Assembly (NCBI RefSeq): GCF_932294415.1
Contig: NC_065535.1
Span: forward strand, 81,489,862-81,553,861
Length of the DNA: 64,000 nt
Source of the DNA: Quercus robur
Taxonomy: Eukaryota > Streptophyta > Magnoliopsida > Fagales > Fagaceae
Direction of reading: 5' to 3'
Under the pieces are notes generated by a model. The model worked only from the letters and a program-made list of their open reading frames with translations, was not told the DNA's origin and did not search any database. This document shows positions 3,145 through 61,537 of the stretch, one piece after another (within the stretch, counting starts at the first letter, position 1; each line of letters opens with the position of its first letter). The position numbers and the translations under genes are program-made.

Positions 3145-3751
3145 TGTGGGGCCCGACAACAGATGGGCCAGGTCCACCTATTCACAGGAATACTTAAGGC
3201 CCAGGCCGAAGAGGATAGTAGTCCCAGCCCAATAAACGCAAAGCACCAATGGGCCATAGAAATCGCCGAGGAGGGTACAGTCCTCGGCTAGCCCAGAGCT
3301 ACACTAAGGAAAGGGGTAAAAGCGGCATAGGGATAATCTTGTAAGAAATCTAAAATATCTAGGAAAGGCTGCCCAAACTACCTGCCCTAGACGGAGCTTT
3401 GTCTTTCACAGAGTCGTGTCTCTTTAGCCTACTCAACCACTCCCAACAACTCAGGTCTTAAACTGATGGGACAAGTGTCAGGCTAGGAAAGTTCGACCCT
3501 ACACGTGGACGAAGGAAATTGAATGCATGTTAATATAAAAGGAAAATTTGCAACCTAAAAAAGGGGCCTTCCAGAAAGAAGAGGACCAAAGGGGTGAACA
3601 CCTCTAAATCATGCAGGAAAAACTTAACAAAACCACAGCCGAGTAAACATGACTTAGCCTTTCGACCCCACTCTCTACAAATAATATTGCACGGGTCCAT
3701 TTACGTGCGAACCCAATCCTACCGTGGTCCAACGCAAATCGTGTCCCTACA
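3145..3751 (+). mobile_element. Solo LTR, E1 family (607 bp)
   Basis: A single LTR starting tgtgggg and ending ccctaca, the same length (607 bp) as the two LTRs of the complete element at 4391-9914 and different at only a few sites. It is flanked by the 5-bp target-site duplication gcaac (3140-3144 and 3752-3756). It carries the promoter-like TATA segment taatataaaagg. Such a structure normally results from recombination between the two LTRs of a complete copy. Confidence 0.95.
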
Positions 3752-4390: not shown

Positions 4391-4997
4391 TGTGGGGCCC
4401 GACAACAGATGGGCCAGGTCCACCTATTCACAGGAATACTTAAGGCCCAGGCCGAAGAGGATAGTAGTCCCAGCCCAATAAACGCAAAGCACCAATGGGC
4501 CATAGAAACCGCCGAGGAGGGTACAGTCCTCGGCTAGCCCAGAGCTACACTAAGGAAAGGGGTAAAAGCGGCATAGGGATAATCTTGTAAGAAATCTAAA
4601 ATATCTAGGAAAGGCTGCCCAAACTACCTGCCCTAGACGGAGCTTTGCCTCTCACAGAGTCGTGTCTCTTTAGCCTACTCAACCACTCCCAACAACTCAG
4701 GTCTTAAACTGATGGGACAAGTGTCAGGCTAGGAAAGTTCGACCCTACACGTGGACGAAGGAAATTGAATGCATGTTAATATAAAAGGAAAATTTGCAAC
4801 CTAAAAAAGGGGCCTTCCAGAAAGAAGAGGACCAAAGGGGTGAACACCTCTAAATCATGCAGGAAAAACTTAACAAAACCACAGCCGAGTAAACATGACT
4901 TAGCCTTTCGACCCCACTCTCTACAAATGATATTGCACGGGTCCATTTACGTGCGAACCCAATCCTACCGTGGTCCAACGCAAATCGTGTCCCTACA
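4391..4997 (+). repeat. 5' LTR of E1
   Basis: Starts tgtgggg and ends ctaca. It contains a palindromic stem (gccgaggag...cctcggc) near position 120 of the LTR and a TATA-like segment (taatataaaagg) about 380 bp in, consistent with the U3/R border. Confidence 0.93.
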
Positions 4998-4999
4998 AT

Positions 5000-5015
5000 T
5001 GGCGCCGTCTGTGGG
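5000..5015 (+). promoter_or_regulatory. Primer-binding site of E1
   Basis: TGGCGCCGTCTGTGGG lies two bases after the 5' LTR. The first nine bases are complementary to the 3' end of plant tRNA-Asp (…CGGCGCCA). The later bases diverge from it, so the primer identity is not certain. Confidence 0.7.
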
Positions 5016-5024
5016 AAGGCTTGC

Positions 5025-5213
5025 ATGTTAGCTCGCGCAGTGGTGAAGTTGAGCTTCTCTCGAACAAGGGGCTATGAAGGTGCCTATATCACCGGCGACA
5101 TATTGCTGATACTCCAACATAAGCTCTTGCTAGGGGCTACGTTCCACGTTGTCAACGACATGGACAAGCCTAGGGGCTTCAAACACCAAGCCAGCTCCCC
5201 CCACCTTATTTGA
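5025..5213 (+). CDS. Leader ORF of E1, unknown function
   Basis: A 62-residue frame starting MLARAVVKLSF just downstream of the primer-binding site. The E2 element has the corresponding protein (ALARAAVELSF...) at about 33707-33925 on the minus strand, continuing in a single frame to ...TLFEEL. In E1 the same homology moves to another frame near 5150, where the ORF at 5149-6276 takes over (SPTLFEEL versus PPTLFEEL). So either E1 has a frameshift or the two frames are joined. I do not recognise the family; it does not look like gag. Confidence 0.4.
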   Translation: MLARAVVKLSFSRTRGYEGAYITGDILLILQHKLLLGATFHVVNDMDKPRGFKHQASSPHLI

Positions 5214-6276
5214 GGAGCTAAACCTTCAGAAAACAAGCTACTTACAAAGAAAAATACAAGTTTTGGACAGAACCAAGGCCTTGCATGGTCCTCGGACCCA
5301 AGCCTCTGGGGAAACCAACTACTTAAAAAGAAAAATACAAGTTTTGGACAGAACCAAGGCCTTGCATGGTCCTCGGACCCAAGCCTCTGGGGAAACCAAC
5401 TACTTACAAAGAAAAATACAAGTTTTGGACAGAACCAAGGCCTTGCATGGTCCTCGGACCCAAGCCTCTGGGGAAACCAACTACTTAAAAAGAAAAATAC
5501 AAGTTTTGGACAGAACCAAGGCCTTGCATGGTCCTCGGACCCAAGCCTCTGGGGAAACCAACTACTTAAAAAGAAAAATACAAGTTTTGGACAGAACCAA
5601 GGCCTTGCATGGTCCTCGGACCCAAGCCTCTGGGGAAACCAACTACTTACAAAGAAAAATACAAGTTTTGGACAGAACCAAGGCCTTGCATGGTCCTCGG
5701 ACCCAAGCCTCTGGGGAAACCAACTACTTAAAAAGAAAAATACAAGTTTTGGACAGAACCAAGGCCTTGCATGGTCCTCGGACCCAAGCCTCTGGGGAAA
5801 CCAACTACTTAAAAAGAAGAATACAAGTTTTGGACAGAACCAAGGCCTTGCATGGTCCTCGGACTCAAGCCTCTGGGGAAACCAACTACTTAAAAAGAAT
5901 CATACAAGTTTTGGACAGAACCAAGGCCTTGCATGGTCCTCGGACCCAAGCCTCTGGGGAAACCAACTACTTAAAAAGAAAAATACAAGTTTTGGACAGA
6001 ACCAAGGCCTTGCATGGTCCTCGGACCCAAGCCTCTGGGGAAACCAACTACTTAAAAAGAAGAATACAAGTTTTGGACAGAACCAAGGCCTTGCATGGTC
6101 CTCGGACTCAAGCCTCTGGGGAAACCAACTACTTAAAAAGAATCATACAAGTTTTGGACAGAACCAAGGCCTTGCATGGTCCTCGGACCCAAGCCTCTGG
6201 GGAAACCAACTACTTAAAGGGAAGCATACAAGTCTCGGACCCTCAACACCAAAAGGGCCGATATGAAATGGAGTAA
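5149..6276 (+). CDS. Repeat ORF spanning the E1 tandem array
   Basis: A 375-residue open frame made almost entirely of twelve 27-residue repeats (consensus core IQVLDRTKALHGPRTQASGE, then TNYLKRK). It stays open because the DNA unit is 81 bp, exactly 27 codons. The N-terminal 28 residues continue the leader homology. In E2 the equivalent unit is 80 bp and the frame is lost. The repeat is rich in K/R, with no recognised domain. It may be translated or may simply be a lucky frame through a non-coding array; I lean to the latter. Confidence 0.3.
   Translation: MSTTWTSLGASNTKPAPPTLFEELNLQKTSYLQRKIQVLDRTKALHGPRTQASGETNYLKRKIQVLDRTKALHGPRTQASGETNYLQRKIQVLDRTKALHGPRTQASGETNYLKRKIQVLDRTKALHGPRTQASGETNYLKRKIQVLDRTKALHGPRTQASGETNYLQRKIQVLDRTKALHGPRTQASGETNYLKRKIQVLDRTKALHGPRTQASGETNYLKRRIQVLDRTKALHGPRTQASGETNYLKRIIQVLDRTKALHGPRTQASGETNYLKRKIQVLDRTKALHGPRTQASGETNYLKRRIQVLDRTKALHGPRTQASGETNYLKRIIQVLDRTKALHGPRTQASGETNYLKGSIQVSDPQHQKGRYEME
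5239..6240 (+). repeat. 81-bp tandem array, 12 full copies plus a partial
   Basis: Units repeat every 81 bp from 5239 to 6210, followed by a degenerate thirteenth. Units differ mainly at the junction codons (CAA/AAA and AAA/AGA/ATC). Units 7-9 and 10-12 carry the same ordered variants, including the shared ggactcaag variant in the middle unit, so a 243-bp block was duplicated as a whole. This indicates unequal exchange within the array. Confidence 0.95.
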
Positions 6277-6759
6277 CATGTTTCTAAAAACATAATCAAA
6301 GTCGCTCGATGCTCAGTCACCCCCTTCAATGAATTATTTGGAGTTCATCGTTTCTCGGACAGCATTCCCGCACATATCACGGGACGTTCAACCGATACCA
6401 AGGTTAGTTTCCTGAATTTAACTTATTGTCAATTATTATTATGCCTGGTAGTATAGGTAAGTTAGAACGAATTAGAACGAGTTGAATCGTGTTTCAAGGG
6501 GCTCCTGCCCTAAGTAGCGCTGAGAGAAAGCACATACGGGGAGTACACTCATTCACGAGATGATGTGCCAAAAGAACCATACCCAAAAACAAGTATATAA
6601 ACTGCTATTTTTATTACGATGAAGAAATAGTACATCGTGCAATGAAAAGCTGGAATCAGCCTGCGTCAAAGCTTACTACATGAGTACTACATAAGTAAGA
6701 AAAAGAAAAATACAAGAAAGCTGTAGAAAGCCGAGGAGGTATGTCGGAGGAAAGGTTGG

Positions 6760-6954
6760 CTACAGCTCCGAGACCTTATTCTTCCCCCGCACCCTTACCT
6801 GCCCATAACTCAGGCAGCCAAAAAGACCCAACTTGAACCTGACACCGTTGAAGAAAAGGTGCAGGGAGTTGAAGGTGATGGGGCTTTCTCTAAATATACA
6901 CCTGCCGCAAAGCAGAGGCGCTGATGGAGGAAAACCCTTCTTCTGCCATACCAA
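6760..6954 (-). CDS. Antisense ORF A2 of E1, unknown protein
   Basis: A 64-residue frame running from MVWQKK to ...KNKVSEL. The E2 counterpart (31855-32049) is the same length and aligns without gaps, sharing SLHL, FNGVR, KLG, CLSYG and KNKV and ending at the same stop. It overlaps the 3' part of A1 in another frame by about 65 bp, so A1 and A2 could be joined by splicing or frameshifting, or A2 could be the true C-terminus. No known domain recognised. Confidence 0.35.
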   Translation of the reverse strand: MVWQKKGFPPSAPLLCGRCIFRESPITFNSLHLFFNGVRFKLGLFGCLSYGQVRVRGKNKVSEL

Positions 6955-7147
6955 AGTGTTGGCATGAACAGAGACTGCTTCGGATTTTGGCTAAAAAAGG
7001 GAGAGACGCCGTTCTCCCTGGGTGGAGATGGAAAACTCTCCTGAACTTGTGCTTCCTGTGTCCATACCTTACTGTTATAAGCCTCATGAAGACACGGCGC
7101 TTCTGCGGCGGAGACATTTCTTTCTTCCCAACCCTCACTTTCAACAT
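6890..7147 (-). CDS. Antisense ORF A1 of E1, unknown basic protein
   Basis: I take the start at MLKVRVGKKE (7147), because that methionine aligns with the start of the E2 counterpart at 31662. The frame is also open upstream to 7246. The 85-residue products of E1 and E2 align end to end without gaps, sharing SPPQ, VRYG, RKHKF, KIRS and CSCQ. The protein is rich in R and K. The segment around KIRS also resembles antisense ORF B of the same element. Function unknown. Confidence 0.4.
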   Translation of the reverse strand: MLKVRVGKKEMSPPQKRRVFMRLITVRYGHRKHKFRRVFHLHPGRTASLPFLAKIRSSLCSCQHFGMAEEGFSSISASALRQVYI

Positions 7148-7585
7148 GTAATGCCAAGAAGGGAGAACTCCGAATATGGAAGCTGTGATGTGGGAGAAAA
7201 TCTGAAGGATTTGTGCGTATATAAAGCAACCTTCTCTCCTTCCCATTTATTGGAAAAGACAAGGTTATGGCAGTCAACTCATGTGGCTTCCCAAGAAACG
7301 CTACAGACAAAACAGTCTTGGCTCAACTTCCAACATCAATTGCAACCACAAGATTAAAAAGCCTCGTAAAGGTGCACCTCGGTCCCCGTGACATCAGAGA
7401 GTACCACGTGGCCAGAAGTTGCGGAAATATCTCTTAAATCAGGGGCTAGGTGGATTCGTGGCCCCGGGCCCGCTTTGGGTAAGGGCCCAGGTACTTTGGC
7501 CGACGCCGAGCAATGACCATGGCCGAGAACAACCACTGTTAAGCACCTCGGGAAATGCTCAAAGGAAGGGAAAACTTGAACTCAA

Positions 7586-7880
7586 GGTCTCGGACAGAAC
7601 CTAAGGCTTGCATGGTCCTCGGACTCAAGCTAAAAGAGAAAACCAAGTGCTAATGCGGACATTGGTCTCGGACAGAACCTAAGGCTTGCATGGTCCTCGG
7701 ACTCAAGCTAAAAGGGAAAACCAAGTACTAATGCGGACATTGGTCTCGGACAGAACCTAAGGCTTGCATGGTCCTCGGGCTCAAACTAAAAGGAAAAATC
7801 AAGTACATAAGATAAAACGCATAAATCCTGAACAAAACCCAGGTTTTGCAAAGTCCTCGGACTCAGGCTGCCCGGGAAAT
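7586..7880 (+). repeat. Secondary 78-bp repeats between antisense blocks
   Basis: Units beginning ggtctcggacagaacctaag at 7586, 7664 and 7742 (78-bp period), then a more diverged fourth. They are a divergent version of the main 81-bp unit (shared gacagaacc, tcctcgga and ggactcaag). E2 has one to two degenerate units in the same relative place (about 31085-31240). Confidence 0.85.
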
Positions 7881-8508
7881 CAACTGCCCAAATGAAGAAA
7901 CTTCTCGGCTTAAATACTGGAAAAGGTTAAGGCTCGCGTATCATCGAGATGGCAGAACAACCTAATGATCGTCAACTTAAAGAGGCCATTCATCCGGTGG
8001 GTAACACGTCCTCGGATAGCTACTTCTTATATCTAATCGGAGCATTTAATACCCATCACGGCTAATTTTAAGACAAGTCTCATTCCACACTGGTCGGATT
8101 GCTACGTTGAATAATTATTTTATTAAAGTCATCGTGGCATCTTTTTATCAACGATTACTTTGGCCTTATTTCTTATTAATTGAAATGCTATACTATTATG
8201 CCGAGCAGCGCATTCACATTTGTTAAAGTATATAAACAAGACATACGAAATAGAGTAACAATCACTTTTATTAATATGAAAAATTGTTACAACCTACAAG
8301 GAAGGGCTTAAATGAGCCAATACAAAAAATGAACTGCTAAAACAGTAACAACATCCGTAACACAAATAATTAAACCATCAGGTGTCTTCTGAATTCGCCT
8401 TCAAAGTTTTTCTGAAATCTATGCCTCAGTACTGTTCACATCAGGAGAAGATCCTTATACAAAAATAATGAAGGACAAGGAAGAAGAATTGGAACACATG
8501 GAAGCACT

Positions 8509-8847
8509 TCAGCAAGCTCTTGTTGCTGAAAAAAGTAAGGGAAAAAGAAGATGGAAGACATGAGCGGGAAGGAGGAGAAGAAGAGGGAAGCAATGAAAAG
8601 AAAGTAAAAGGAGCAAAAGAGGGAAAAGGGGAGTCATATTAGGTATGCTCATGAGAGAGCAGATGGAGATGACAAGGGAGGTTTTTGACTCGGCCACACC
8701 GGAAATAGGATGTGACGAGCCCCTGCTTCGGATTTTGGCTAAAAGAATGGGGAGACAAACCTTGAGTCTCCACCACCCTTTCCCTGACCGAGCCATCTCA
8801 AGTTTCGTTAAGGTATGGTGTTTCTGGGAAAGGAGGGATTCATTCAT
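8509..8847 (-). CDS. Antisense ORF B of E1, unknown protein
   Basis: A 112-residue frame starting MNESLLSQKHHTLTKLEMAR. The first 75 residues align with the E2 product (30103-30330): both contain LTKLEMARSG, GWWRLK, KIRSR and SLMSI. The remaining C-terminus is leucine-rich low complexity from a CT-rich stretch and is not conserved in frame. A conserved TATA box lies about 115 bp upstream. The KIRSR region resembles ORF A1, suggesting that A and B arose by duplication. Function unknown. Confidence 0.4.
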   Translation of the reverse strand: MNESLLSQKHHTLTKLEMARSGKGWWRLKVCLPILLAKIRSRGSSHPISGVAESKTSLVISICSLMSIPNMTPLFPLLLLLLSFHCFPLLLLLPAHVFHLLFPLLFSATRAC

Positions 8848-8960
8848 GGTTGATCACTATGGGGGACGTGTTATCGACTGAGGAATAACCAGAGGGAAGA
8901 AGGGGATTCTGAGAAGGGTCTAAGGGATTCGCATATGAGAGAATCACCTTCTTATCTTCT

Positions 8961-8973
8961 CTCTTTATATAGG
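8961..8973 (-). promoter_or_regulatory. TATA box of antisense block B (E1)
   Basis: Minus-strand sequence cctatataaagag, identical to the one at 29952-29964 in E2, with agaagataagaag versus agaagaaacaag following. Its position, about 115 bp before ORF B, fits a plant core promoter. Confidence 0.6.
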
Positions 8974-9289
8974 GAAAAAGACGAGGGTACGTGACACGCT
9001 CCGATCCTCTAAGAAATCTGCTAGTAAATGCAAAACCGTTTCGTTTCTCCAAGCTATCCATAACCGCTAGATTTAAGAGGCCTCGTAAAAGGAAGACATT
9101 AAAAGCGCACTACGGCTAACCAAACGGAATAAACGCCTCACGCGTAAGTCAAGGGAAATACCTCGTAGACCGGCGCATTCCTTGGGGAGGTGGAAAGTCG
9201 CAGACGTTGATTAAGGGCCGAACTTAATGAGCCGCAATAGAGTCTCGGTATCATCAAAACCCACCTTTCCAACCGAGGAGTTGGATAGC

Positions 9290-9307
9290 AGGGTTTTGAG
9301 GGGCTAT
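9290..9307 (+). other. Polypurine tract of E1
   Basis: agggttttgaggggctat directly precedes the 3' LTR. The same string precedes the 3' LTR of E2 on its own strand (29617-29634), which supports common ancestry of the two elements. Confidence 0.8.
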
Positions 9308-9914
9308 TGTGGGGCCCGACAACAGATGGGCCAGGTCCACCTATTCACAGGAATACTTAAGGCCCAGGCCGAAGAGGATAGTAGTCCCAGCCCAATAAAC
9401 GCAAAGCACCAATGGGCCATAGAAACCGCCGAGGAGGGTACAGTCCTCGGCTAGCCCAGAGCTACACTAAGGAAAGGGGTAAAAGCGGCATAGGGATAAT
9501 CTTGTAAAAAATCTAAAATATCTAGGAAAGGCTGCCCAAACTACCTGCCCTAGACGGAGCTTTGCCTCTCACAGAGTCGTGTCTCTTTAGCCTACTCAAC
9601 CACTCCCAACAACTCAGGTCTTAAACTGATGGGACAAGTGTCAGGCTAGGAAAGTTCGACCCTACATGTGGACGAAGGAAATTGAATGCATGTTAATATA
9701 AAAGGAAAATTTGCAACCTAAAAAAGGGGCCTTCCAGAAAGAAGAGGACCAAAGGGGTGAACACCTCTAAATCATGCAGGAAAAACTTAACAAAACCACA
9801 GCCGAGTAAACATGACTTAGCCTTTCGACCCCACTCTCTACAAATGATATTGCACGGGTCCATTTACGTGCGAACCCAATCCTACCGTGGTCCAACGCAA
9901 ATCGTGTCCCTACA
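9308..9914 (+). repeat. 3' LTR of E1
   Basis: 607 bp, same limits as the 5' LTR. By eye two changes: gtaagaaat to gtaaaaaat, and cacgtgg to catgtgg (a CpG transition). Confidence 0.93.
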
Positions 9915-16056: not shown

Positions 16057-17805
16057 TTACAGCGCGTTATGATTGTTATGATGATGATTTACTATCCCGA
16101 GTGGGGAGTTGGCGTCTGGTACGGCTTGCCAAGCCGAAGCCGATATGAGAGGTCGGCTATGCCAGCCGAGAGTCAAGCAACCTTCGTTCTCTTCTACACA
16201 GTACCCTTCAGCTGAAAACAGAGTCAAAAGCATCCTCGCTTGTTTGAACGCATTGGATCCCAGATGTGACGGACTAAATCCGGCTTGTCCGAGCCGGCTT
16301 CTCCACTTCGCTAACGGCTCGTGCCGCTCAAATCGAGCCGAGCCTTCGCAGCTCACCACGTTGCATATTTCTCTCTGTATGTAGATTTCGGCTAGGGCTT
16401 TCTCTGGCTGGAGAGTACAGGCTTCGAGTGAGTCGAACATGGTTGAGTAGTAGTATAGGGATTCCGTGAACCGGTCCATGAACCCGGGTTGGTTATGGTT
16501 CGCTTCGTGCTCAATTACTGTCATGATTTTCGGGTTCAATTGTCTGATCCACCCGAGAACGATTTCGATGGGCGGGCTTCTGTTCGGGTCGGATCCTAGA
16601 AGTCGATGGAGCTGCATGATTGAGTTTACAGCCACCGCTTCTTTGGAATTCACTTGCAGCATCCACGGCTTCACGTCTTCGAGCCGCTGAGCCGCCACGC
16701 CTCGAAAAGCGAACCGGACGTTGACCGAGCGAGCTAACTCGGCGAGTCGTAACCCGATTTCTCGGAGCGAGTCTCGTCCGTCCGGTGACGGAGGGCCAAT
16801 GCCGGTTAGCCGTAGCAGAGGAGGCCCGCCGGGCCGTAACGCCAAAGCTTGAATCAAAGCCGGCCATTGCAGACCGTGCATTAGGTTGAAATCGATGACG
16901 TGGACGCAATCGTGGCCGTCGAATGCTTCTAATATGGCTTGGTTGGCGGTGAAGTGAGCGAATTTCAGGTACGGACACGCCTCGTAAAAATGATGGTAGA
17001 GAAGCTCGTTCTCGTAAGCCGAAGCCGAGCCGGAGACGGAGCCGCCGAATAAGCTGCTGGCTTGCGGCGTGAAGATGCGGCGGCTGAGTGCTTCGATGAA
17101 GTAACCGGCGACCTTCCCAATGCCACAGGTGGTGTTGACACGTCTGAGCAAGGACTGCATTTCATCGATCAGAGAACCAGCCAATGAGAACTCGCCACGT
17201 TGCACTGATTCCGCACACGTCATCAGCAAATGCACCAGCCTTATACCCGAATCTTCTTCCATCGCCGTTACAACCGTCAACTGATTCGGCGGGATTGTTA
17301 AACTCTGCATATTCTGCTGCTGCTGTGGAGGCGCATCGTTGTCCGTCCACGTGGCATCCGCTTCGTTTTTTACCGTTGGATTGATCCCTGGGCCCACGAC
17401 GATGTCTGGAAGATCTGGGAGATCGGACGGTAGAGACGGGGTGTGGTTGAACTCGGAGAGGAGCGAGTCGACCCAGGAGGCGATATCGGAGGGGTTGTAG
17501 TGAACGGTATCGGAAGAAGCGAGCTGGGAGAGCTCGACGGGGGAGTTGACCATGGCAGTTTCGAGGCGCTCGAGTCGTTGAGCCACGTGGCGAAGATCGG
17601 AGGCGCGGACCTTGTAGCCGGCGCCGGCGAGGAGGCCATCGATATCGGCGGGTTTGGTGGAGGAGGAGGCGGAACTGCTGCCACTGCTGCTGCCAGCTGA
17701 CGTGGCGGAATCGTACGGAGACATATCTGCGAGGGATTGAATTTCGAAGTGGCTGGCTGTTTCTTTATTTTGTTGTTGGTTCTTGTGATCAGATACAAGG
17801 TACAA
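16057..17805 (-). CDS. DELLA-type GRAS transcriptional regulator
   Basis: Intronless 582-residue protein, the usual length and structure for a DELLA repressor of gibberellin signalling in the nucleus. N-terminal GID1-binding region: DGLLAGAGYKVRASD (residues 56-70), LERLE (78-82) and TVHYNP (100-105), then an S/T-rich linker. The GRAS domain covers about 187-560: LHRI from IRLVHLLMTCAES, VHVIDF at 301, LHRII, a PFYRE-type region around 425-460, and SAW with W559. The signature DELLA is DGLLA here (E to G). TVHYNP and LExLE are intact, so GA-dependent binding and degradation are plausible but not proven. An alternative start is M28 (MSPYDSATS, 17724), which would remove an unremarkable N-terminus and match typical starts. 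A CT-rich run sits just upstream in the probable 5' UTR. No frameshift or stop. Confidence 0.95.
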   Translation of the reverse strand: MYLVSDHKNQQQNKETASHFEIQSLADMSPYDSATSAGSSSGSSSASSSTKPADIDGLLAGAGYKVRASDLRHVAQRLERLETAMVNSPVELSQLASSDTVHYNPSDIASWVDSLLSEFNHTPSLPSDLPDLPDIVVGPGINPTVKNEADATWTDNDAPPQQQQNMQSLTIPPNQLTVVTAMEEDSGIRLVHLLMTCAESVQRGEFSLAGSLIDEMQSLLRRVNTTCGIGKVAGYFIEALSRRIFTPQASSLFGGSVSGSASAYENELLYHHFYEACPYLKFAHFTANQAILEAFDGHDCVHVIDFNLMHGLQWPALIQALALRPGGPPLLRLTGIGPPSPDGRDSLREIGLRLAELARSVNVRFAFRGVAAQRLEDVKPWMLQVNSKEAVAVNSIMQLHRLLGSDPNRSPPIEIVLGWIRQLNPKIMTVIEHEANHNQPGFMDRFTESLYYYSTMFDSLEACTLQPEKALAEIYIQREICNVVSCEGSARFERHEPLAKWRSRLGQAGFSPSHLGSNAFKQARMLLTLFSAEGYCVEENEGCLTLGWHSRPLISASAWQAVPDANSPLGIVNHHHNNHNAL

Positions 17806-17832
17806 CTTTGTGGATTTCGTAGATCATTCCTA

Positions 17833-21039: not shown

Positions 21040-22075
21040 ATGGCAGAGGAGCTTGAAAGGCTGTGGAGTAAACTGTCATTTACTGAGGAGGAGGATGAAG
21101 GAATCGAGCTTGATTTCAACTGTACCAAGGCAGCAAGGGAGATAGGGAAGAACTGTGCGTTAATGAAGATCTTAGCTCACAAAAGTATAAGCATTAAGGC
21201 ACTTAGAAAAAACATGAGAATGCTCTAGAAACCCAACAAGGGTGTCCAAATTTCTGAGGTTGATGAGGATCTATTCTTGGTGGAATTCGGGAATGGTAGG
21301 GACAAGAAAAAATTTTTGGATATGTGTCCATGGAGTTATGAAAAGTAGTTGGTTCTACTCCAAGAGTTCAATGGGAAACTTACCCCAAAGGAGGTCAAGA
21401 TCAGGTGGGCACCCTTTTGGGTCCAAATTTTCAACCTTCCCCTGAACTGTAGAACGAAGGAAATAGGACTAGCAATTGGTGCCAAGCTAGGTGAGGTGTT
21501 GGAGATAGATGTTCAAGAGTCTGGGGTTCATTGGGGAACGTGTTTGAGGGTGAAGGTGCATTTAGATGTGACCAAGACATTGCTTAGAGGTAAAAAGATC
21601 ACTATGGAAGGCGGGGAAAGCAGGTGGGTCAATTTCAAGTATGAGAGGCTGCCCAACTTCTGCTACCAGTGTGGACTGCTGAACCACGCTCTAAAAGAAT
21701 GCCCAAAAAATGGTGAAGGAAACAAGAGCACAGAGAGGTGATATCATAAGGAGATATGCGCAAGAACAAAACAAAATGGGTATGGGAAGAAGAGCGGACA
21801 CATATACAAGCCAGTGGGGCGCCGAAGCTAAATTGGAAAGGAGGAAGGTGACTCTCAGTGCAAACGAAATCTCAGTGGGGATTGGTGAGGCTCATGGCTC
21901 GAGACAACCAACCTTGGAGAAGAATCCGTTGACACAGCAGAAAGTTAAGGCTGGGGAAGGTGTGATGGCGTCAATGGTATTACACGAAAATGGGATGGGC
22001 GACGAGATGGCTAAAAAGAAAGAAAAGAAGATGACGGTTTCAGTAGTGGATGCATCGATCCAAGCAAAATCTTAG
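21040..22075 (+). pseudogene. LINE ORF1 (DUF4283-like plus CCHC knuckle), broken
   Basis: Begins MAEELERLWSKLSFTEEEDE about 160 bp into the element. In-frame stops occur at about 21226 and 21343 (the latter in YEK*LVLLQ, where a Q codon would fit, CAG to TAG). After the second stop comes the DUF4283-type segment (VKIRWAPFWVQIFNLP), then a zinc knuckle C-X2-C-X4-H-X4-C starting near 21661 (CYQCGLLNHALKECP). The frame ends at 21741, and the C-terminal tail continues in another frame (21710-22075). The intact family protein binds element RNA and DNA as a chaperone. Confidence 0.85.
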
Positions 22076-22446
22076 ATAAATGAGATAGAGAGCATGACGT
22101 GGGACAAAAGTATTGACCAAAGGGAAAAATTAGTGCTGAAAGAAATTTTGGCGCCAGCTTTAGATGTAAAAAACGGGTGGATTGAGGAAAAAATGGGCCA
22201 AAACAGTAGGCACTAGAAACGTTTGGCCCGAGAGGTTAAAAAGGAATCAAAAGGGGAGGAAAAAGGGCCTAAAAGCTTGAAACAGGAGGGCCAAACCCCA
22301 TTAAGTGACTTAGACCCAAATGTGCTAGATACAAAATGCAGAAAAGATGGTAGAAATGAAGGTAAACAAATTAGACGTAGGTCTAATGAAGAAATGGTGA
22401 TGGTTGGCAGAGAGGCGGTTGCTGCGAGGCAACACCGCCGAGCCTC

Positions 22447-25400
22447 ATGACAATCCTGGCATGGAACTGTCGAGGCATGGGGTCGGCCTTGGCAGTTCGG
22501 ACTCTTGCCGATGAGGCGAGATCAAAGGACCCACTGTTGGTTTTCTTAACAGAAACGAAGATAGGGGAGAGCAAAATGAAGGGAATTAGAAATAAATTGG
22601 AGTATACGCAGGGCATTACGGTTCCTAGTGATGGAAAAAGTGGAGGGCTAGCTATGATGTGGAAGGAAGGCTCAGATATCAAACTTAGAAGCTGCTCAAA
22701 CTCCCACATAGATGTGGAAGTCCATTCGAGCTCGGCACCAATTCCATGGAGAGCTACGGGTTTCTATGGGCACCCCGATATAGATAAACGTTTTATCTCG
22801 TGGCAATTGCTGGAATTTCTTAAAAATCAGTATACAATGTCGTGGATAGTGTTTGGTGATTTTAATTAAATTACACAGTCAGATGAGAAAATAGGGTGGT
22901 TGGACAGAGATGCTAAACAGATGGCGGAGTTTAGGGACTATTTGAATCGATGTGAGCTATGTGATTTAGGCTTTATTGGACAGAAGTTCACATGGTGCAA
23001 TGGGTAGGATGGTGAGCAGCGCACTAAGATTAGGCTTGACAGAATGGTCGCGAATGAGGATTGGTTGAGATTATACCCTGAGGCGAGAGTGAGGCATGTA
23101 GCGATGTCCATTTCGGATCATTGCTTATTAATGCTCTCTCTCACGTGCAAACAACCCAAAAAACAGGGGAGGAAACATTTTTTTATTGAAGCAATGTGGA
23201 CAAGGGATGAAAGGTGCAGAGAAATAATAGAAGGGGCATAGGAGTTGGATCGGGTGGACTCAAAGGGTGGTATAAGGGGTAGAATCAAAAGATGCCAGGA
23301 ACAAATTCAAAAATGGAATTGGATGGAGTTTGGGAATGTTAATAAGATGCTAAAACAAACAAAAAAAAAAAAAAAAAAAAAGGAGAAATTTCAACAACTG
23401 GAGTTATGGGACAGCTTACATGGGAATGCAAAGGAGATCAAGAGGGTGAGAAAGGACATTAATGAGATTCAGGTTAGAGAAGCAATGATGTGGAATCAAA
23501 GGTCTAGAACACTTTGGTTAAAATGGGGTGATAGAAACACAAAGTTCTTCCACGCTACCGCGAGTCAAAGACAGAGGAAAAATTGGATTGTGGGGCTACA
23601 AGACTCGCATGGGGTTTGGCAAGAAGATAAAGAAGAAATTGAGCGAACCATTTTGGGTTACTTTGAGACCATTTACAAGTCCAACCAGCCAACCTATTTT
23701 GAGGCTAGCTTGAGCTCAATAACTACCCGAGTCTCTATAGACATGAATGAAGAACTGCTTGCAGATTTCAAGGCTGAGAAATTTTGGTATGCCCTAAAGC
23801 AAATGCACCCAACAAAAGCTCACAGGCCGGACGGTATGTCACCAATCTTCTTTAAACACAATTGGAATATTGTTGGGCCAAAAGTGGTTAATTATGTTCT
23901 TTCTTCTCTTAATTTGGGTAGGATGCCATGTAGTCTGAATGGAACATATATATACCTTATCCCAAAGGTGAAATTCCCCCCAAAAAATTATGGAATTCAG
24001 GCCAATAAGTTTGTGCAATGTGGTGTATAAACTAATCTCTAAGGTTCTTGCTAATAGACTGAAAAGAGTGTTGGCTGTAGTGATTGATGAGTCGCAGAGC
24101 GCTTTTGTCCCTAGTAGACTTATTACTGATAACGTGCTTGTAGCCTTTGAAACCATGCATTGCATCAATCAAAGAAAGAAAGGGAAGGAAGCACTTATGG
24201 CCGTAAAACTTGACATGAGCAAGGCGTACGACTAGGTGTACTTGGAAGCTATGATGAGAAAGATGGGTTTTCATGAAAGGTGGACTTCCCTAATAATGAT
24301 GTGTGTAACTACAGTTTCCTACTCTGTGTTAATTAATGGCGAACCAAAAGGGAAAATTACTCCATCAAGGGGGTTACGCCAAGGTGACCCCATATCTCCC
24401 TACTTCTTCTTATTGTGTGCTGAAGGTCTATCAGCAATGATCAAAAAGGAGGAAGGGGGGGGGGGGGAGGCATTTAAAGGGGCTTGCAGTTAGTAGAAGA
24501 GCTCCAAGCATTACCCATATGTTGTTTGCTGACGATAGCTTAGTGTTTTGTAGAGCCACGAGGGAGGAATGTGATAGGGTTTTAAAAGTGCTTGAGGATT
24601 ATGAAGGGGATTTGAGGCAAAAATTCAATAAGGAAAAAACCTCTCTCTATTTTAGCAAGAACACTAGCAGGGAGATAAAGGAATATGTGAAGGAGAAGTT
24701 TGGGGCTAGAGTTGTTCAACACCATGAAAAGTACTTGGGGCTGCCACCGCTTGTGGGGAGGGGAAAAAGAAAGGCCTTCAATTGAATCAAGGACCAAGTA
24801 GGGAGGAAAATAGCTTGTCGGAAGGGTAAGCTTCTTTCTCATGCTAGTAGGGAAATTCTCATTAAGGCGGTCGCTCAAGCAATGCCAACGTATACGATGA
24901 GTTGTTTCAAACTCCCGAACACGTTGTGCAAAGAGCTGAACTCCCTAATGGGGAACTTTTGGTGGGGCCAAAAAGATAAGGAAAGGAAAATGGCTTGGAT
25001 CTCATGGGAGAGGTTGTGCACTCTAATGGCAAAGGGAGGTATGGGATTTAGGGACTTAAAAGCCTTCAATCTGGTGCTACTTGCTAAACAATGGTGGAGA
25101 ATGTAGCAAAATGCTGATTCTCTTGTCCATAGAGTGCTCAAAGTGAAATATTTCCCGAATAATGTGGCTAATGAGGCGGAGTTAGGAAGTAGGCATTCCT
25201 ATGCGTGGAGAAGCATATGGACAGCAAAAAAGGTGGTTGATAGAAGGTCTAGATGGTGCATAGGAAATGGGGAAGGGGTACGGATATGGAAGGATAGGTG
25301 GATTCCATCCCCGGAATCATTCAAAGTGACAAGCCCGGTTGATGCCCACTCGGGATTAGAGATGGTGTCGAGTTTGATGGATGTAGATAGGAGGGATTGG

Positions 25401-28975: not shown

Positions 28976-29616
28976 TGTAAGGTCACGTTCCGCGACGAAC
29001 CGCAGTAGTGTTGGGTTCGCACGTGAATGGGCCCAAATAATATCATTTGTAGAGAGTGGATTCGAAAGGCTAGGCCTTAGTTACCCAGCGGTGGTTTTTG
29101 TGGTGTTCATATGTGATTAAAGTGCCTTCACCCTTGGAGTCTTTCTCCTGGAGGTGGACTGGAAGCCCTTCCTTTTTGGCCAGTCTTCCCAGCCCCCTTC
29201 TCTAGATTACTTATTTTTTCTTTTATACTAGCCTGCATTCACTTTCCTTCGTCCACGTGTAGGGTCAACCTTTCCAACACTGATACTTGTCCCGTCAGTC
29301 TAAGACAAAAGTCGTAAGGAGTGGTTGATAAAGCTAAAGCCTACGACTCTGTTAGGTGCAGAGCTAGGTATGGGGAAGGTAGTAAGGGTAGCCTTTCCTA
29401 GATATTTTAGATTTTCTTTCAAGTTTGTCCCTATACCGTTTTTGCCCTTCTTCTTGATGGAGCTTAGGGCCAGCCGAGGACTACACTGTCCTCGGCTGCT
29501 TCTCCGGGCCCATTTGTGCTTCACATCATTGAGTTTGGATTGTAACACTCTTCGGCTTAGGCCTTAGGGCTCCCCATGAATAAATGAGCTCGGCCCATAA
29601 ATTGCTGGGCCCTACA
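28976..29616 (-). repeat. 3' LTR of E2
   Basis: 641 bp. On the element strand it starts tgtagggccc and ends ccttaca. Confidence 0.92.
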
Positions 29617-29634
29617 ATAGCCCCTCAAAACCCT
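29617..29634 (-). other. Polypurine tract of E2
   Basis: On the minus strand agggttttgaggggctat immediately precedes the 3' LTR, identical to the tract of E1. Confidence 0.8.
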
Positions 29635-29951
29635 GCTGTCCGACTTCCTGGTTGGAGAGGAGGGTTTTGATAATACCGAGCCTTTATTATGACTCATTTA
29701 ATTCAGCCCTTGACTGACGCTAGCGACTCTTCACTTGCTCAGGGAATGTACCGGTCCACAAGATGTTCCCCTTGATTTGCGCACGACGCGTTTATGCCGT
29801 TTAGTTATCTGAAGCGCGTCTTTAATATCTTCCCTTTACGAGACCTCCCAGGTTCAACGGTTTTGGATGGCGTGGGGGAATGAAACGGGCGTATTCATGT
29901 TTGCAGATTTCCTTGGAGATCTGAACTCATTAAGTACTCTTTTCTTCGTCC

Positions 29952-29964
29952 CCTATATAAAGAG
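29952..29964 (+). promoter_or_regulatory. TATA box of antisense block B (E2)
   Basis: cctatataaagag, about 140 bp before ORF B, identical to the E1 box at 8961-8973 although surrounding sequence has diverged. Confidence 0.6.
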
Positions 29965-30102
29965 AAGAAACAAGAGTTGTTTCTCCCACAGATGAATCCC
30001 TTTACTCCCCCCAAAATTTGAAACCCTTAGATTCCTTCCGGAGTTTACTTTCATTCTCCGGTTATACCTTAACCTGAAATACACTCATCGTAGTAATAAG
30101 CA

Positions 30103-30330
30103 ATGAAAAAATTATTCCCCTCCCAGAAACGCCATGCTCTAACAAAGCTCGAAATGGCTCGGTCAGGGCAAGGATGGTGGAGACTCAAGATTTGTCTTGC
30201 CTTTCTTTCAACCAAAATCCGAAGTAGGGACTCGTCACGTCACATTTTTGGCGTGACTGAGCCGAGGACACACATCATCAGTACTACCCGCTCTCTCATG
30301 AGCATATCTAATATGGCACCAGTGTGTTAG
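30103..30330 (+). CDS. Antisense ORF B of E2, unknown protein
   Basis: 75 residues, MKKLFPSQKRHALTKLEMAR onward. Conserved with E1 8847-8509: LTKLEMARSG, GWWRLK, KIRSR, SLMSI. After its stop another frame (30324-30620) continues with a CT-tract product and a tail, AEIGEILKTSLKDT, that matches DNA retained in E1. The ancestral product was therefore probably longer, and the frame break here may be a mutation or a lost intron border. Not a recognised family. Confidence 0.4.
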   Translation: MKKLFPSQKRHALTKLEMARSGQGWWRLKICLAFLSTKIRSRDSSRHIFGVTEPRTHIISTTRSLMSISNMAPVC

Positions 30331-31084
30331 GAGTCAGGACTGGGACAGGGACTAAGTGCCCCTGCTTCTTCCTCTCTTCGTTCACTGGCGCCTCCTTTTG
30401 CCTCTCTTTCTTCCTTCTCACCTTTTCCCTCTTCTTCTCCTCCTTCTTTTACTCATGTCCTCCATCTTCTTCATTCATCTCCTCCATCTTCCTCATTCAT
30501 CTCCTCCATCCTCTTCTTCCTTCTCCTTCATCTTTTTCTAAAGAAAGTTCTTCTCTCAATATGAGTAATACTGAGGCAGAGATTGGAGAGATTTTGAAGA
30601 CGAGTTTAAAAGACACCTGACTGTTTACTTATCCGTATTGCGGATGTTATTGTTATTTCGGCAATTCACCTTTTGTATAGGCTTGTTTAAGCCCCTTTTT
30701 GTACGTTGTAATAATTTTTCATATTAATAAAAATTGTTGTTATTTTACTTCGCATGTTCTATTTCTATGTTTTTACAAGTTTACAAGCGCTGCTCGGCAC
30801 AATAATAAAGCATTTGAACCAATGACAACTAAGGTCAAAATACTTGCTAATAAAAAGATGTCACCATAACTTTAATAGAATTATTTGACACAGCAATGCC
30901 TATCTGTGAATAACGATACTTACCCAAAACAATGCCGAGATTAGAATTGGATGCTCTATGCGGTGTAGGAGATAATCATCCGAGGACATATCCCTCGCAA
31001 GAATGAACAACCCCCATAGGCTACCAAATAGTGGGGCGTCTCGCCATCATCCTAACACTTTTATCGGCCTTAACATTTTAAAGT

Positions 31085-31240
31085 ATTTGAGCCGAGGGCT
31101 TTCCCCATTTGAGTAGTGGGCGTCCCAATAGGTTTGAGTCCGAGGACTTCACAACGCCTTGGTTCTGTCCAAAACCTAGTTTTGTCACCCAGGTAGTTGG
31201 TTTCCCCATAGGCTTGAGTCCGAAGGCTGTAGTTCAGTTT
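31085..31240 (-). repeat. Degenerate units of the 80-bp repeat in E2
   Basis: Two diverged units (ggtttgagtccgaggac and ggcttgagtccgaaggc on the plus strand) between antisense blocks A and B, corresponding to the 78-bp repeats of E1 at 7586-7880. Confidence 0.65.
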
Positions 31241-31661: not shown

Positions 31662-31922
31662 ATGTTTGAGGCGAGGGTTGGGGAGAAGAAACTCTCTCCG
31701 CCACAGAGGCACCGTGTCCTCTTGAGACTCAGAATAGTGAGGTACGGGCAAAGGAAACATAAATTCAAGAGAATACTCCGCTTCGACAGAGGGGAAAGGG
31801 TGTTTCTCCCTCTTCTAGTCAAAATCCGAAGCAGGTTCTGTTCATGCCAGAATTTTGGTGTGTCAGAAGAAAGATTCTCCGCCATCATCGTCTCTACCCT
31901 GTCGCAGGCAAATTTTTGGTGA
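31662..31922 (+). CDS. Antisense ORF A1 of E2, unknown basic protein
   Basis: 86 residues starting MFEARVGEKKLSPPQRHRVL. It aligns without a gap with the E1 product (start 7147) and is strongly enriched in R and K. The KIRSR...CSCQNFGVSEE segment is the part resembling ORF B (KIRSRDSSRHIFGVTE). Confidence 0.4.
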   Translation: MFEARVGEKKLSPPQRHRVLLRLRIVRYGQRKHKFKRILRFDRGERVFLPLLVKIRSRFCSCQNFGVSEERFSAIIVSTLSQANFW

Positions 31923-32049
31923 AGGCTTCTCAACTTCCGGCTCCCTGCACCTTTCCTTCAACGGTGTGAGGCTCAAGTTGGGTTTCTTTTGCTGCCTGAG
32001 TTATGGGCATGTAAAAGCATTGAGGAAGAACAAGGTCTTGGAGCAGTAG
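31855..32049 (+). CDS. Antisense ORF A2 of E2, unknown protein
   Basis: 64 residues, MVCQKKDSPPS to KNKVLEQ, the same length and stop as the E1 version. It overlaps the A1 frame by 68 bp. Having both overlapping frames kept in two diverged elements hints at a spliced or frameshifted joint product, but could also reflect limited divergence. Confidence 0.35.
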   Translation: MVCQKKDSPPSSSLPCRRQIFGEGFSTSGSLHLSFNGVRLKLGFFCCLSYGHVKALRKNKVLEQ

Positions 32050-32656
32050 CCAACCTCTCTTCTGATCCACTTCCTCGGCTTTATCTTATTCTCTTGTATC
32101 TTTCTTTCTTTTTGGTTATGTAGTGAGCTCTGACATAAGCTGATTCCAGCTTTTCATTGTACGCTGTACTGTTTCTTTGTTTTAGTAAAAATGAAAATTT
32201 ATTTACTTGTTTTGAATACTATTCTTTTGGCAACACCACTTTGTGAATGGGTGTGCTCCATGTGTTTGTTTCTCCTCGGCGATATTTAAAGCAAGAACCC
32301 TTGAAACACAATCCAACTAGTTCTAATTTGCCGACACTACCAGGCATAATAATAACAATTCATAGTAAGTTGAACTTAGGAAACTAACCGAGATAATGGT
32401 TGAACGTTCTGTAATAAGTGCGAGAATACTGTTTGAGAACGACCAATTCTAAATAATTCATCCGAGGGGGTGACCGAGCATTGAATGACTTCGCTTATGC
32501 TTTTGGAAACATGTTGCTCCATTCCGTACTAGTCCCTTTGGTTTTGAGGATCCGAGGGCAAACTAGAGAATCCATGTAGTTCAGGAATTAACTCAATTGT
32601 TAATGGAGAGTTTTCCTCGGGGAGATTCTAAGGTCCACGTAACGTAGTTTTTACTT

Positions 32657-33691
32657 TTAAGTAGTTGGTTTCCCCAGAGGCTTGGGTCTGAGGACCATAC
32701 AAGGCCTTGGTTTTGTCCAAAACTTGTATTCTTTTTGTAAGTAGTTGGTTTCCCCAGAGGCTTGGGTCCGAGGACCATACAAGGCCTTGGTTCTGTCCAA
32801 AACTTGCATTCTCTTTTTAAGTAGTTGGTTTCCCCAGAGGCTTGGGTCCGAGGACCATACAAGGCCTTGGTTCTGTCCAAAACTTGTATTCTCTTTGTAA
32901 GTAGTTGGTTTCCCCAGAGGCTTGGGTCCGAGGACCATACAAGGCCTTGGTTCTGTCCAAAACTTGTATTCTCTTTTTAAGTAGTTGGTTTCCCCAGAGG
33001 CTTGGGTCTGAGGACCATACAAGGCCTTGGTTCTGTCCAAAACTTGCATTCTCTTTTTAAGTAGTTGGTTTCCCCAGAGGCTTGGGTCCGAGGACCATAC
33101 AAGGCCTTGGTTCTGTCCAAAACTTGTATTCTCTTTTTAAGTAGTTGGTTTCCCCAGAGGCTTGGGTCCGAGGACCATACAAGACCTTGGTTCTGTCCAA
33201 AACTTGTATTCTTTTTTTAAGTAGTTAGTTTCCCCAGAGGCTTGGGTCTGAGGACCATACAAGGCCTTGGTTCTGTCCAAAACTTGTATTCTCTTTTTAA
33301 GTAGTTGGTTTCCCCAGAGGCTTGGGTCCGAGGACCATACAAGGCCTTGGTTCTGTCCAAAACTTGTATTCTCTTTGTAAGTAGTTGGTTTCCCCAGAGG
33401 CTTGGATCCGAGGACCATATAAGGCCTTGGTTCTGTCCAAAACTTGCATTCTCTTTTTAAGTAGTTGGTTTCCCCAGAGGCTTGGGTCCGAGGACCATAC
33501 AAGGCCTTGGTTCTGTCCAAAACTTGTATTCTCTTTGTAAGTAGTTGGTTTCCCCAGAGGCTTGGGTCCGAGGACCATACAAGGCCTTGGTTCTGTCCAA
33601 AACTTGTATTCTCTTTTTAAGTAGTTGGTTTCCCCAGAGGCTTGGGTCCGAGGACCATACAAGGCCTTGGTTCTGTCCAAAACTTGTATTC
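32657..33691 (-). repeat. 80-bp tandem array, about 13 copies (E2)
   Basis: Units with ccttggttctgtccaaaact recur every 80 bp from about 32701 to 33661. They are homologous to the 81-bp units of E1 but one base shorter, so the reading frame rotates each unit. Frames on the element strand run across several units until a unit with the TTAA junction variant closes them. Confidence 0.95.
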
Positions 33692-33706
33692 CGTTTCTTA
33701 ATTTAC

Positions 33707-34015
33707 CTACTTCCTAAAGGTTAGCTCCTCGAATAAGGTGGGGGAAGCTAACTTGATGTTTAAAGCCCCTAGACTTGCTATGCCATTGGCACTACGAGGC
33801 GTAGCCCCTAGTGGGAACTTGTGTCGGAACAACAACAACGTGTCGCCGGTCGTAAAGGCATCCTCATAGACCCTTGTTCGACAGAAGCTCAACTCCACCG
33901 CCGCTCGAGCTAACGCGCAAGCCTTCCCCACAGACGGCGCCAATTGTAAGGTCACGTTCCGCGACGAACTGCAGTAGTGTTGGGTTCGCACGTGAATAGG
34001 CGCAAACAATATCAT
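33707..34015 (-). CDS. Leader ORF of E2, unknown function
   Basis: The open frame begins inside the 5' LTR. The part matching E1 starts near ALARAAVELSFCRTRVYEDA (about 33922) and continues in one frame to SPTLFEELTFRK. It lies between the primer-binding site and the tandem array. No recognised domain. Confidence 0.35.
   Translation of the reverse strand: MILFAPIHVRTQHYCSSSRNVTLQLAPSVGKACALARAAVELSFCRTRVYEDAFTTGDTLLLFRHKFPLGATPRSANGIASLGALNIKLASPTLFEELTFRK
33927..33942 (-). promoter_or_regulatory. Primer-binding site of E2
   Basis: Minus strand TGGCGCCGTCTGTGGG, two bases after the 5' LTR and identical to that of E1. Confidence 0.7.
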
Positions 34016-34584
34016 TTGTAAAGAGTGGATTCGAAAGGCTAGGCCTTAGTTACCCAGCGGTGGTTTTTGTGGTGTTCATATGTGATTAAAGTGCCTTCAC
34101 CCTTGGAGTCTTTCTCCTGGAGGTGGACTGGAAGCCCTTCCTTTTTGGCCAATCTTCCCAGCCCCCTTCTCTAGATTACTTATTTTTCTTTTATACTAGC
34201 CTGCATTCACTTTCCTTCGTCCACGTGTAGGGTCAACCTTTCCAACACTGATACTTGTCCCGTCAGTCTAAGACAAAAGTCGTAGGGAGTGGTTGATAAA
34301 GCTAAAGCCTACGGCTCTGTTAGGTGCAGAGCTAGGTATGGGGAAGGTAGTAAGGGCAGCCTTTCCTAGATATTTTAGATTTTCTTTCAAGTTTGTCCCT
34401 ATACCGTTTTTGTCCTTCTTCTTGATGGAGCTTTGGGCCAGCCGAGGACTGCATTGTCCTCGGCTGCTTCTCCGAGCCCATTTGTGCTTCACATCATTGA
34501 GTTTGGATTGTAACACTCTTCGGCTTGGGCCTTAGGGCTCCCCATGAATAAATGAGCTCGGCCCATAAATTGCTGGGCCCCACA
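33945..34584 (-). repeat. 5' LTR of E2
   Basis: 640 bp, one base shorter than its partner through a T-run indel. On the element strand it starts tgtggggccc. Confidence 0.92.
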
Positions 34585-61250: not shown

Positions 61251-61537
61251 AAAAAAAAATATGAGTAATCTTGGGGATAAAAATTTTACTAGATAAATAT
61301 TACAAATTGACATATCTCCAATCACAAAAACTATTCTAAACATTTATTTAATATCTTGTTGACTGTGGTATCAAATTTATTTATTATCACGTTACTTTGT
61401 AATTTTTTTTTTTAAGAGCAAATGACGGGCATTTTCGCATTTACTCAAAAATAAATGAATAAATAAATATAAAATTGTAGCACTGGAGATTGTGAGCTTT
61501 CTTTAACAGAAATACCGAACATCCACAAGCAAAAGCA

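What the first reader, a model, noticed from the sequence alone, without database searches (positions are those of the whole stretch)
6600..9000. Conserved antisense genes inside two non-autonomous LTR elements
E1 (4391-9914) and E2 (28976-34584) lack gag-pol, yet both carry two blocks reading opposite to the element. Seen directly: gap-free protein alignment of A1 (E1 start 7147 / E2 31662), A2 (6760-6954 / 31855-32049) and the first 75 residues of B (8847 / 30103); an identical TATA box cctatataaagag before B in both; a conserved A-rich 3' end. Tat-clade Ty3/gypsy elements such as Grande and Retand are known to carry antisense extra ORFs, so antisense ORFs have precedent. Two such units kept in an element that has lost everything else is unusual. 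Inference: the products or the antisense RNAs help the parasite, for example by modulating host silencing or complementing a partner.
Basis: partly seen in the sequence, partly recalled or inferred. Interest (0 to 1): 0.75.

Follow-up and report, generated by a model that had tools for sequence, protein, structure and literature searches.

The report
Duplicated antisense unit in gag-less retrotransposon
Two plant jumping genes that lack all the usual replication genes carry two diverged copies of one small backward-reading unit; the layout recurs across the host genome and resembles the antisense genes known from Retand elements, but whether the small proteins are still needed is only weakly supported.

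Summary
Observation partly confirmed. E1 (4391-9914, +) and E2 (28976-34584, -) are complete LTR insertions with PBS, PPT and target-site duplications; 0 of 89 ORF pieces outside arrays and LTRs match Pfam. A1, A2 and B are open as described, but A2 shows no coding signal. New: A1 and B are paralogues of one small basic protein (profile alignment 95.5%, E 1.4e-8); the inside is a duplicated module, [tandem array + antisense unit] twice. The layout recurs in the host genome: 2,931 copies of the shared 15-base core (control 3); 58 of the first 100 stand in same-strand pairs 1.6-2.2 kb apart; the B TATA box follows 29 of 100 copies of the PBS in antisense, 0 in sense. Four of ten further PBS loci carry gag: candidate helpers. 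Purifying selection on A1 and B is weak and uneven (omega about 0.5-0.8 in E2-type copies, none on A1 in E1-type). Antisense ORFs, arrays and non-autonomous members are published for Retand elements. Verdict: new variant of a known kind; a role against host silencing is untested.

The parts
4391..4997 (+). E1 5' LTR (607 bp)
   Evidence: 2 differences to the 3' LTR; TSD ACTAC
4998..5017 (+). E1 primer binding site ATTGGCGCCGTCTGTGGGAA (called PBS by position; tRNA not tested)
   Evidence: 1,925 exact copies in the genome, control 0
5231..6240 (+). E1 main tandem array, 81-bp unit, about 12 copies (module A)
6609..7300 (-). antisense unit A of E1 (5' limit approximate); core and 3' end homologous to unit B
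6890..7147 (-). ORF A1 (85 aa, pI 11.6), paralogue of B
6760..6954 (-). open frame A2: not supported as coding
   Evidence: pN/pS 0.61 and 0.98; variants neutral outside A1
7586..7900 (+). E1 second array, 78-bp unit, about 70% like the main array (module B)
8266..8369 (-). 3' end of unit B with AATAAA at 8267-8272, homologous to the 3' end of unit A (6609-6707)
8509..8847 (-). ORF B of E1 (112 aa; the first 71 codons align with E2)
8961..8973 (-). TATA-like box CCTATATAAAGAG before B
9308..9914 (+). E1 3' LTR, preceded by a polypurine-like tract
3145..3751 (+). solo LTR of the same family
   Evidence: 99.3%
28976..29616 (-). E2 3' LTR
29952..29964 (+). TATA-like box before B in E2
30103..30330 (+). 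ORF B of E2 (75 aa, pI 11.6)
30726..30731 (+). AATAAA at the 3' end of unit B in E2
31662..31922 (+). ORF A1 of E2 (86 aa, pI 11.6)
31855..32049 (+). open frame A2 of E2: not supported as coding
32648..33699 (-). E2 main tandem array, 80-bp unit
33945..34584 (-). E2 5' LTR; PBS at 33925-33944 (-)

Best explanation
E1 and E2 belong to a large, structurally uniform family of non-autonomous LTR elements (Ty3/gypsy Tat-like by layout) that have lost gag-pol and keep 5' LTR, PBS, leader, [array 1 + antisense unit A], [array 2 + antisense unit B], PPT and 3' LTR. Units A and B are diverged duplicates of one antisense unit (one short ORF for a basic protein, AATAAA-type end, and before B a TATA-like box). 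Shown: the duplication, the uniform structure in the copies read, the genome-wide recurrence of core, TATA box and PBS, and gag-bearing elements with the same PBS. Inferred: gag-pol proteins of such helpers copy the family in trans; the units are transcribed from their own promoters against the genomic RNA; the ancestral ORF made a small nucleic-acid-binding, probably nuclear, accessory protein, as Grande gene23 is reported to do; this protein was under purifying selection in the past and is now under weak or relaxed selection, differing between subfamilies.
For: No gag-pol: 0 of 89 pieces. Of 20 copies chosen by a non-coding stretch, 18 gave both LTRs; divergence 0.8-4.2%. Of these 18, the TATA 13-mer is exact in 17 and a polyA-region motif in 15. 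A1-B homology: hhalign E 1.4e-8; each profile finds the other ORF of E2 at 7.6e-7 and 1.9e-8; colinear DNA matches at core and 3' end in three of four pairings (the fourth, E2 A with E1 B, at the core only), none with reversed controls. Core 15-mer 2,931 against 3; 29 same-strand pairs at 1.57-2.24 kb among the first 100, no opposite-strand neighbour within 5 kb; 21 of 25 TATA 13-mers have the core 150-320 bp downstream. TATA antisense 1-9 kb after 29 of 100 PBS, sense 0, chance 0.5. gag behind the same PBS in 4 of 10 loci. Coding: A1 pN/pS 0.33 against 0.63 (P 0.02), its first 64 codons 0.22 (0 of 300 shuffles), B 0.40 against 0.63 (P 0.073); one stop among 180 internal-branch changes in the A1+B frames, against 10, 11, 11, 3 and 10 in the five other frames; neutral simulation keeps the frame open in 3-8% (context model) or 17-23% (flat model) of runs at the E1-E2 distance; net charge above nucleotide shuffles in 3 of 4 ORFs.
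Against: With a methylation-context neutral model, omega of shared variants is 0.52 for A1 (P 0.042), 0.78 for B (P 0.34), 0.64 together (P 0.057). On a tree the non-synonymous share does not differ between internal and terminal branches (P 0.63); shared against singleton variants gave P 0.058. A1 in E1-type copies: 27 non-synonymous to 9 synonymous shared variants, no constraint. E1-E2 alone: A1 0.48 (P 0.13), B 0.33 (P 0.059). Profile cross hits to the E1 ORFs are weak (0.0012, 0.04) and an unrelated window frame reached 0.0088. A sense frame over A1 is about as open as A1 (32 of 36 and 18 of 19 copies, against 34 of 36 and 14 of 19). Conservation equals that of the LTR. B is broken or missing in 11 of 39 E2-type rows. 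The TATA-like box was examined before B only. No transcript data. The gag-bearing loci were not shown to mobilise this family.
Confidence: 0.6

Rival explanations
1. The units are non-coding today: what is kept are cis signals (promoters, antisense RNA, packaging or dimerisation RNA), as recalled for barley LARDs; the ORFs are relics that look open because the stretch is poor in stops.
For: ORF conservation equals that of LTR and leader; sense frame over A1 equally open; A1 unconstrained in E1-type; the 15-nt core shared by A and B is identical in the four window units but for one base. In the structure scan the lowest z were -4.66 and -4.40 (sense, weak energies) and -3.58 (antisense, over the B core) among 70 windows.
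Against: A1-B similarity in one frame at profile level and codon-column tests for A1 of E2 against both B ORFs (P 0.013, 0.030; the two pairs with A1 of E1 gave 0.18 and 0.12); few stops on internal branches. No hairpin common to the four folded cores was seen by eye.
Confidence: 0.3
2. The real coding strand over unit A is the sense strand.
For: Sense frame open in 32 of 36 and 18 of 19 copies; E1-E2 score 244 against 243 for the antisense frame; in three of four A-B pairings the best sense and antisense protein scores are close (45/49, 44/44, 60/65).
Against: Sense pN/pS 0.59 (P 0.34) is weaker than antisense 0.48 (P 0.13); over B the sense frame is open in only 2 of 37 E2-type copies, though in 20 of 20 E1-type ones; within E2 the A-B protein alignment scores 82 antisense against 45 sense.
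Confidence: 0.05
3. The antisense ORFs are diverged remains of the TRP28 antisense gene of Retand elements.
For: Same place before the 3' LTR, same orientation, arrays beside them, LTRs near the published Retand average of 635 bp (PMC11963269); TRP28 matches abound in this genome (150 scored of 4,148 candidates).
Against: No PF04195 match in any of the 89 pieces at E<=0.01 or in the ORFs at E<=10; A1 and B profiles do not match three TRP28 loci (best E 0.76), nor is there DNA similarity.
Confidence: 0.05

Closest known systems
Retand lineage of Tat Ty3/gypsy elements (PMC11963269: abstract, find passages and part 1 of section 11 seen)
   Same: Antisense ORFs between pol and 3' LTR, tandem arrays there in about half, LTRs averaging 635 bp, some non-autonomous clusters recently active.
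   Different: Ten of its 63 clusters lack one or more of GAG, AP, RH, INT, but none in Table 1 lacks all four; here no gag-pol domain was found, no TRP28, ORFs are 75-112 aa instead of over 600 bp, and the antisense unit is duplicated.
Maize Grande gene23 (PMC7264820, passages seen; original paper not seen)
   Same: Antisense gene before the 3' LTR, transcribed from its own promoter; nuclear protein.
   Different: Grande carries gag-pol; no sequence comparison with gene23 was made here.
LARDs and the Dasheng/RIRE2 pair (recalled; only search listings seen)
   Same: No gag-pol, long conserved inside, dependence on helpers.
   Different: Recalled as non-coding inside; here there are paired antisense ORFs.
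82-bp tandem repeat of Coffea Gypsy/TAT elements (title seen in the reference list of PMC11963269)
   Same: 80-81-bp arrays.
   Different: Sequences not compared.

Membership tests
LTR retrotransposon | two near-identical LTRs, PBS, PPT, target-site duplication | tested here: met
   other copies
non-autonomous (LARD-like) element | no gag-pol coding domains, yet multi-copy with TSDs | tested here: met
   0 of 89, window elements; copies of the same layout
Tat/Retand lineage | placement in the lineage by reverse transcriptase phylogeny | not testable with these tools
   no RT in the elements; helper pol not fetched
Tat/Retand lineage | antisense ORF with TRP28 (PF04195) | tested here: not met
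   present elsewhere in the genome
Tat/Retand lineage | antisense ORFs and tandem arrays upstream of the 3' LTR | tested here: met
antisense accessory gene (gene23-like) | own promoter and transcript | not testable with these tools
   TATA-like box in a fitting place before B; no RNA data
antisense accessory gene (gene23-like) | protein under purifying selection | tested here: inconclusive

The most novel reading that the evidence does not exclude
A retrotransposon family that has given up all replication proteins but keeps, over several subfamilies and probably more than a thousand copies, a duplicated pair of antisense genes for a small basic protein: an accessory-gene-only parasite whose own products give it an edge in using the helper's machinery.
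Probability: 0.3. Interest if true: 0.75.

Novelty: new variant of a known kind. Interest (0 to 1): 0.5.

Why it matters
The function of the antisense genes of Tat elements is an open question. A family that has lost gag-pol but keeps paired antisense units separates the two: if the proteins or antisense RNAs matter, this is where their effect can be measured apart from gag-pol. If they are only relics, it shows that a conserved layout alone should not be read as gene function.

Tried and rejected
A2 as a gene: rejected. Known domain: no Pfam match for the 89 pieces at E<=0.01; at E<=10 the A and B frames gave only three matches, each below its cut-off, and the E1 array reading frame gave repeat-driven matches. 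Solved-structure relative: none. TRP28 kinship: not found. Relatives outside the host genome: no match in the searches made (viral contigs by B protein and by PBS and array patterns; GTDB contigs by array pattern; plasmids by unit A DNA); one search gave two viral contigs by one 19-base match, not followed. Rfam at gathering threshold: nothing. Conserved RNA structure: 70 windows, mean z -0.99; the lowest z (-4.66, -4.40, -3.58) were followed only through folds of the cores, where I see no common hairpin; not decisive. Hyperconservation of the 15-nt core within subfamilies: seen for A1 of E1-type (no variant; 1 of 244 windows as low), weak for A1 of E2-type (42 of 247) and B of E1-type (106 of 325), absent for B of E2-type (114 of 214). 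Splicing at the T-rich stretch before the core was considered by eye and dropped. The A1 list and the ratio 0.34 come from copies picked by protein score and are not used as evidence of selection; misread the orientation of loci and was replaced. Counts included unrelated or deleted rows (L077, L096, L060); repeated without them. Structure prediction was never accepted, so there is no fold evidence.
Full report
What is there. The window is plant DNA (DELLA/GRAS, F-box and DYW-type PPR genes) from a 786-Mb genome of 42 contigs. E1 (4391-9914, +) and E2 (28976-34584, -) are complete LTR insertions: LTRs of 607 and 640/641 bp, 99.7% and 97.5% identical within each element, target-site duplications ACTAC and ATAAT, the same PBS and a similar PPT. 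None of 89 ORF pieces of 40 aa or more outside arrays and LTRs matches Pfam at E<=0.01, so no gag-pol domain was found. A solo LTR of the family lies at 3145-3751.

Check of the frames. A1, A2 and B are open at the stated places; B aligns gap-free for about 71 codons. The ORFs are not better conserved between E1 and E2 than LTR or leader. In 1,000 column shuffles at each of two block sizes the longest co-open run of 87 codons is unremarkable (P 0.12-0.13), the number of runs of 60 or more (six) is not (P 0.001), and two of the six run in sense. Between E1 and E2, dN/dS is 0.48 for A1, 0.54-0.63 for A2, 0.33 for B, against shuffled medians of 0.60-0.68 (P 0.13, 0.28-0.43, 0.059).

A and B are one unit, duplicated. 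Local DNA alignment finds colinear matches between unit A and unit B at the core and at the 3' end within E1, within E2 and for E1 A with E2 B; for E2 A with E1 B only the core; none against reversed sequence. Profiles of A1 and B proteins align with 95.5% probability, E 1.4e-8, over 59 columns; each profile finds the other ORF of E2 (7.6e-7, 1.9e-8), while the hits to the E1 ORFs are weak (0.0012, 0.04) and one unrelated frame of the window reached 0.0088. The arrays beside them are related too (about 70%). So the inside is [array 1 + unit A][array 2 + unit B]. One copy, L109, has B fused to the tail of A1 at the shared core, as a deletion between the two units would make.

Across the genome. 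The shared core (15 bases, one of them C or T) occurs 2,931 times, its reversal 3 times. Among the first 100 places there are 30 same-strand neighbours within 5 kb, 29 of them at 1.57-2.24 kb, and no opposite-strand one; 21 of 25 TATA 13-mers have the core 150-320 bp downstream. The PBS 20-mer occurs 1,925 times, its reversal never. Of the first 100 PBS, 29 have the TATA 13-mer in antisense 1-9 kb downstream (27 of the 29 distances are 3.2-6.3 kb; the other two share one TATA box), none in sense, 0.5 expected; 28 of 45 TATA 13-mers are so placed. Of 53 PBS, 15 have two or more cores in antisense within 0.5-7 kb, 14 one, 24 none; none in sense. The first ten PBS without the TATA 13-mer were read for 1.3 kb: four carry gag (Pfam Retrotrans_gag); of the other six, four have arrays and a leader about 66-69% like ours (L144, L147, L149, L151), one a leader 75-84% like ours (L150), one only its first 36 bases (L148). 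L147, of the third type, has a core pair 1.58 and 3.54 kb after its PBS; none of the four gag-bearing loci has an exact core within 7 kb downstream. TRP28 matches are abundant in the genome (150 scored of 4,148 candidates) but three such loci share no DNA with E1 or E2.

Copies read. Twenty 6.2-kb stretches were fetched through the non-coding stretch before B (the best 20 after E2 itself of 40 listed, out of 2,108 candidates). Eighteen gave both LTRs, with divergence of 0.8-4.2%; 14 TSDs are perfect, three differ by one base and one is cut off by the stretch; of the other two, L042 runs beyond the stretch and L059 holds only LTR, promoter and the start of B. L043 and L050 lack parts of the units and L060 most of A1. 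For the remaining 19 listed places only the B and A1 stretches were fetched, and for the E1-type 20 of 40 listed places, every second rank, out of 1,305 candidates.

Is it coding? In 19 E2-type rows, pN/pS is 0.33 for A1 (null 0.63, P 0.02), 0.22 for its first 64 codons (0 of 300), 0.40 for B (P 0.073), 0.61 for A2 (P 0.48), 0.98 for A2 outside A1; the other forward frames of A1 and B gave 0.45-0.99 and four non-coding controls 0.70, 0.98, 0.45 and 1.33, none significantly low. Variants shared by two or more rows should be mostly older than insertion: 14 non-synonymous, 17 synonymous, 1 stop, P 0.005 against a neutral share of 0.70, but P 0.058 against singletons. With more rows (38 for B, 36 for A1; three unrelated or deleted rows dropped) and a neutral model by methylation context, the excess shrinks: omega 0.52 for A1 (P 0.042), 0.78 for B (P 0.34), together 0.64 (P 0.057); singletons 0.92. 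Over 55 A1 and 57 B rows of both types, internal branches carry 1 stop among 180 changes in the A1/B frames, but 10, 11, 11, 3 and 10 in the other five frames; the non-synonymous share is below 0.70 (P 0.007) yet does not differ from terminal branches (P 0.63). E1-type A1 shows no constraint (27 to 9), E1-type B 8 to 6. By the script's rule B is intact in 28 of 39 and A1 in 32 of 38 E2-type rows (two of the six A1 rows fail only because the fetched piece ended three bases short). The A1 stretch is about as open in sense as in antisense; for B the antisense frame is open in 30 of 37 and 20 of 20 copies, the sense frame in 2 of 37 and 20 of 20. The ORFs are basic, pI 10.1-11.6. I conclude that A1 and B probably descend from one protein-coding ORF, that A2 is not supported as a gene, and that present selection on A1 and B is weak, patchy or past.

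Mechanism. Best supported: the family moves in trans with gag-pol of elements that share its PBS (inferred), and carries two antisense units with polyA-type ends and, before B, a TATA-like box (sequence), whose product, if made, is a small basic protein that may act on nucleic acids in the nucleus, by analogy with Grande gene23 as reviewed in PMC7264820 (passages seen). Antisense RNA acting by itself is the main rival and the two are not exclusive.

Known or new. PMC11963269 (abstract, passages and part 1 of section 11 seen) reports antisense coding regions in all its Retand clusters, TRP28 in 97%, arrays in about half, and non-autonomous clusters lacking some domains. Four library searches on such elements and one on LARDs listed no title on a gag-pol-less family with duplicated antisense units; for the other papers only listings were seen and most subscription journals are not held, so this is not proof of absence.

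Noticed in passing
5231-6240 and 32648-33699: The main tandem arrays of E1 and E2 are 91-94% identical to each other while the LTRs are 74% and the 3' half about 68%: recombination between co-packaged subfamilies, or constraint on the repeat.
   Followed up: partly
21349-25820: A broken LINE-type element (zinc knuckle, DUF4283, endonuclease and zf-RVT pieces) reading +.
   Followed up: no
16060-17823 (-), 44327-45568 (-), 61496-63688 (+): Host genes: DELLA/GRAS protein, F-box protein, DYW-type PPR protein.
   Followed up: no
L109: Copy in which ORF B is fused to the tail of A1 at the shared core, a deletion between the two units. Whether the fusion multiplied did not complete.
   Followed up: partly
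L043: LTR-bounded 3.4-kb copy with TSD that lacks A1 and the later part of unit B: unit A may be dispensable in cis, or the deletion came after insertion.
   Followed up: partly
L127, L128, L134, L136: E1-type copies whose A1 middle part resembles E2-type by eye: a mosaic or intermediate subfamily.
   Followed up: no
6975-6989 (-), 8723-8737 (-) and counterparts in E2: CAAAATCCGAAGCAG is the longest block shared by units A and B; the four window units are identical but for one third-position C/T in B of E2. It is preceded by a T-rich stretch. Its role is unexplained.
   Followed up: partly
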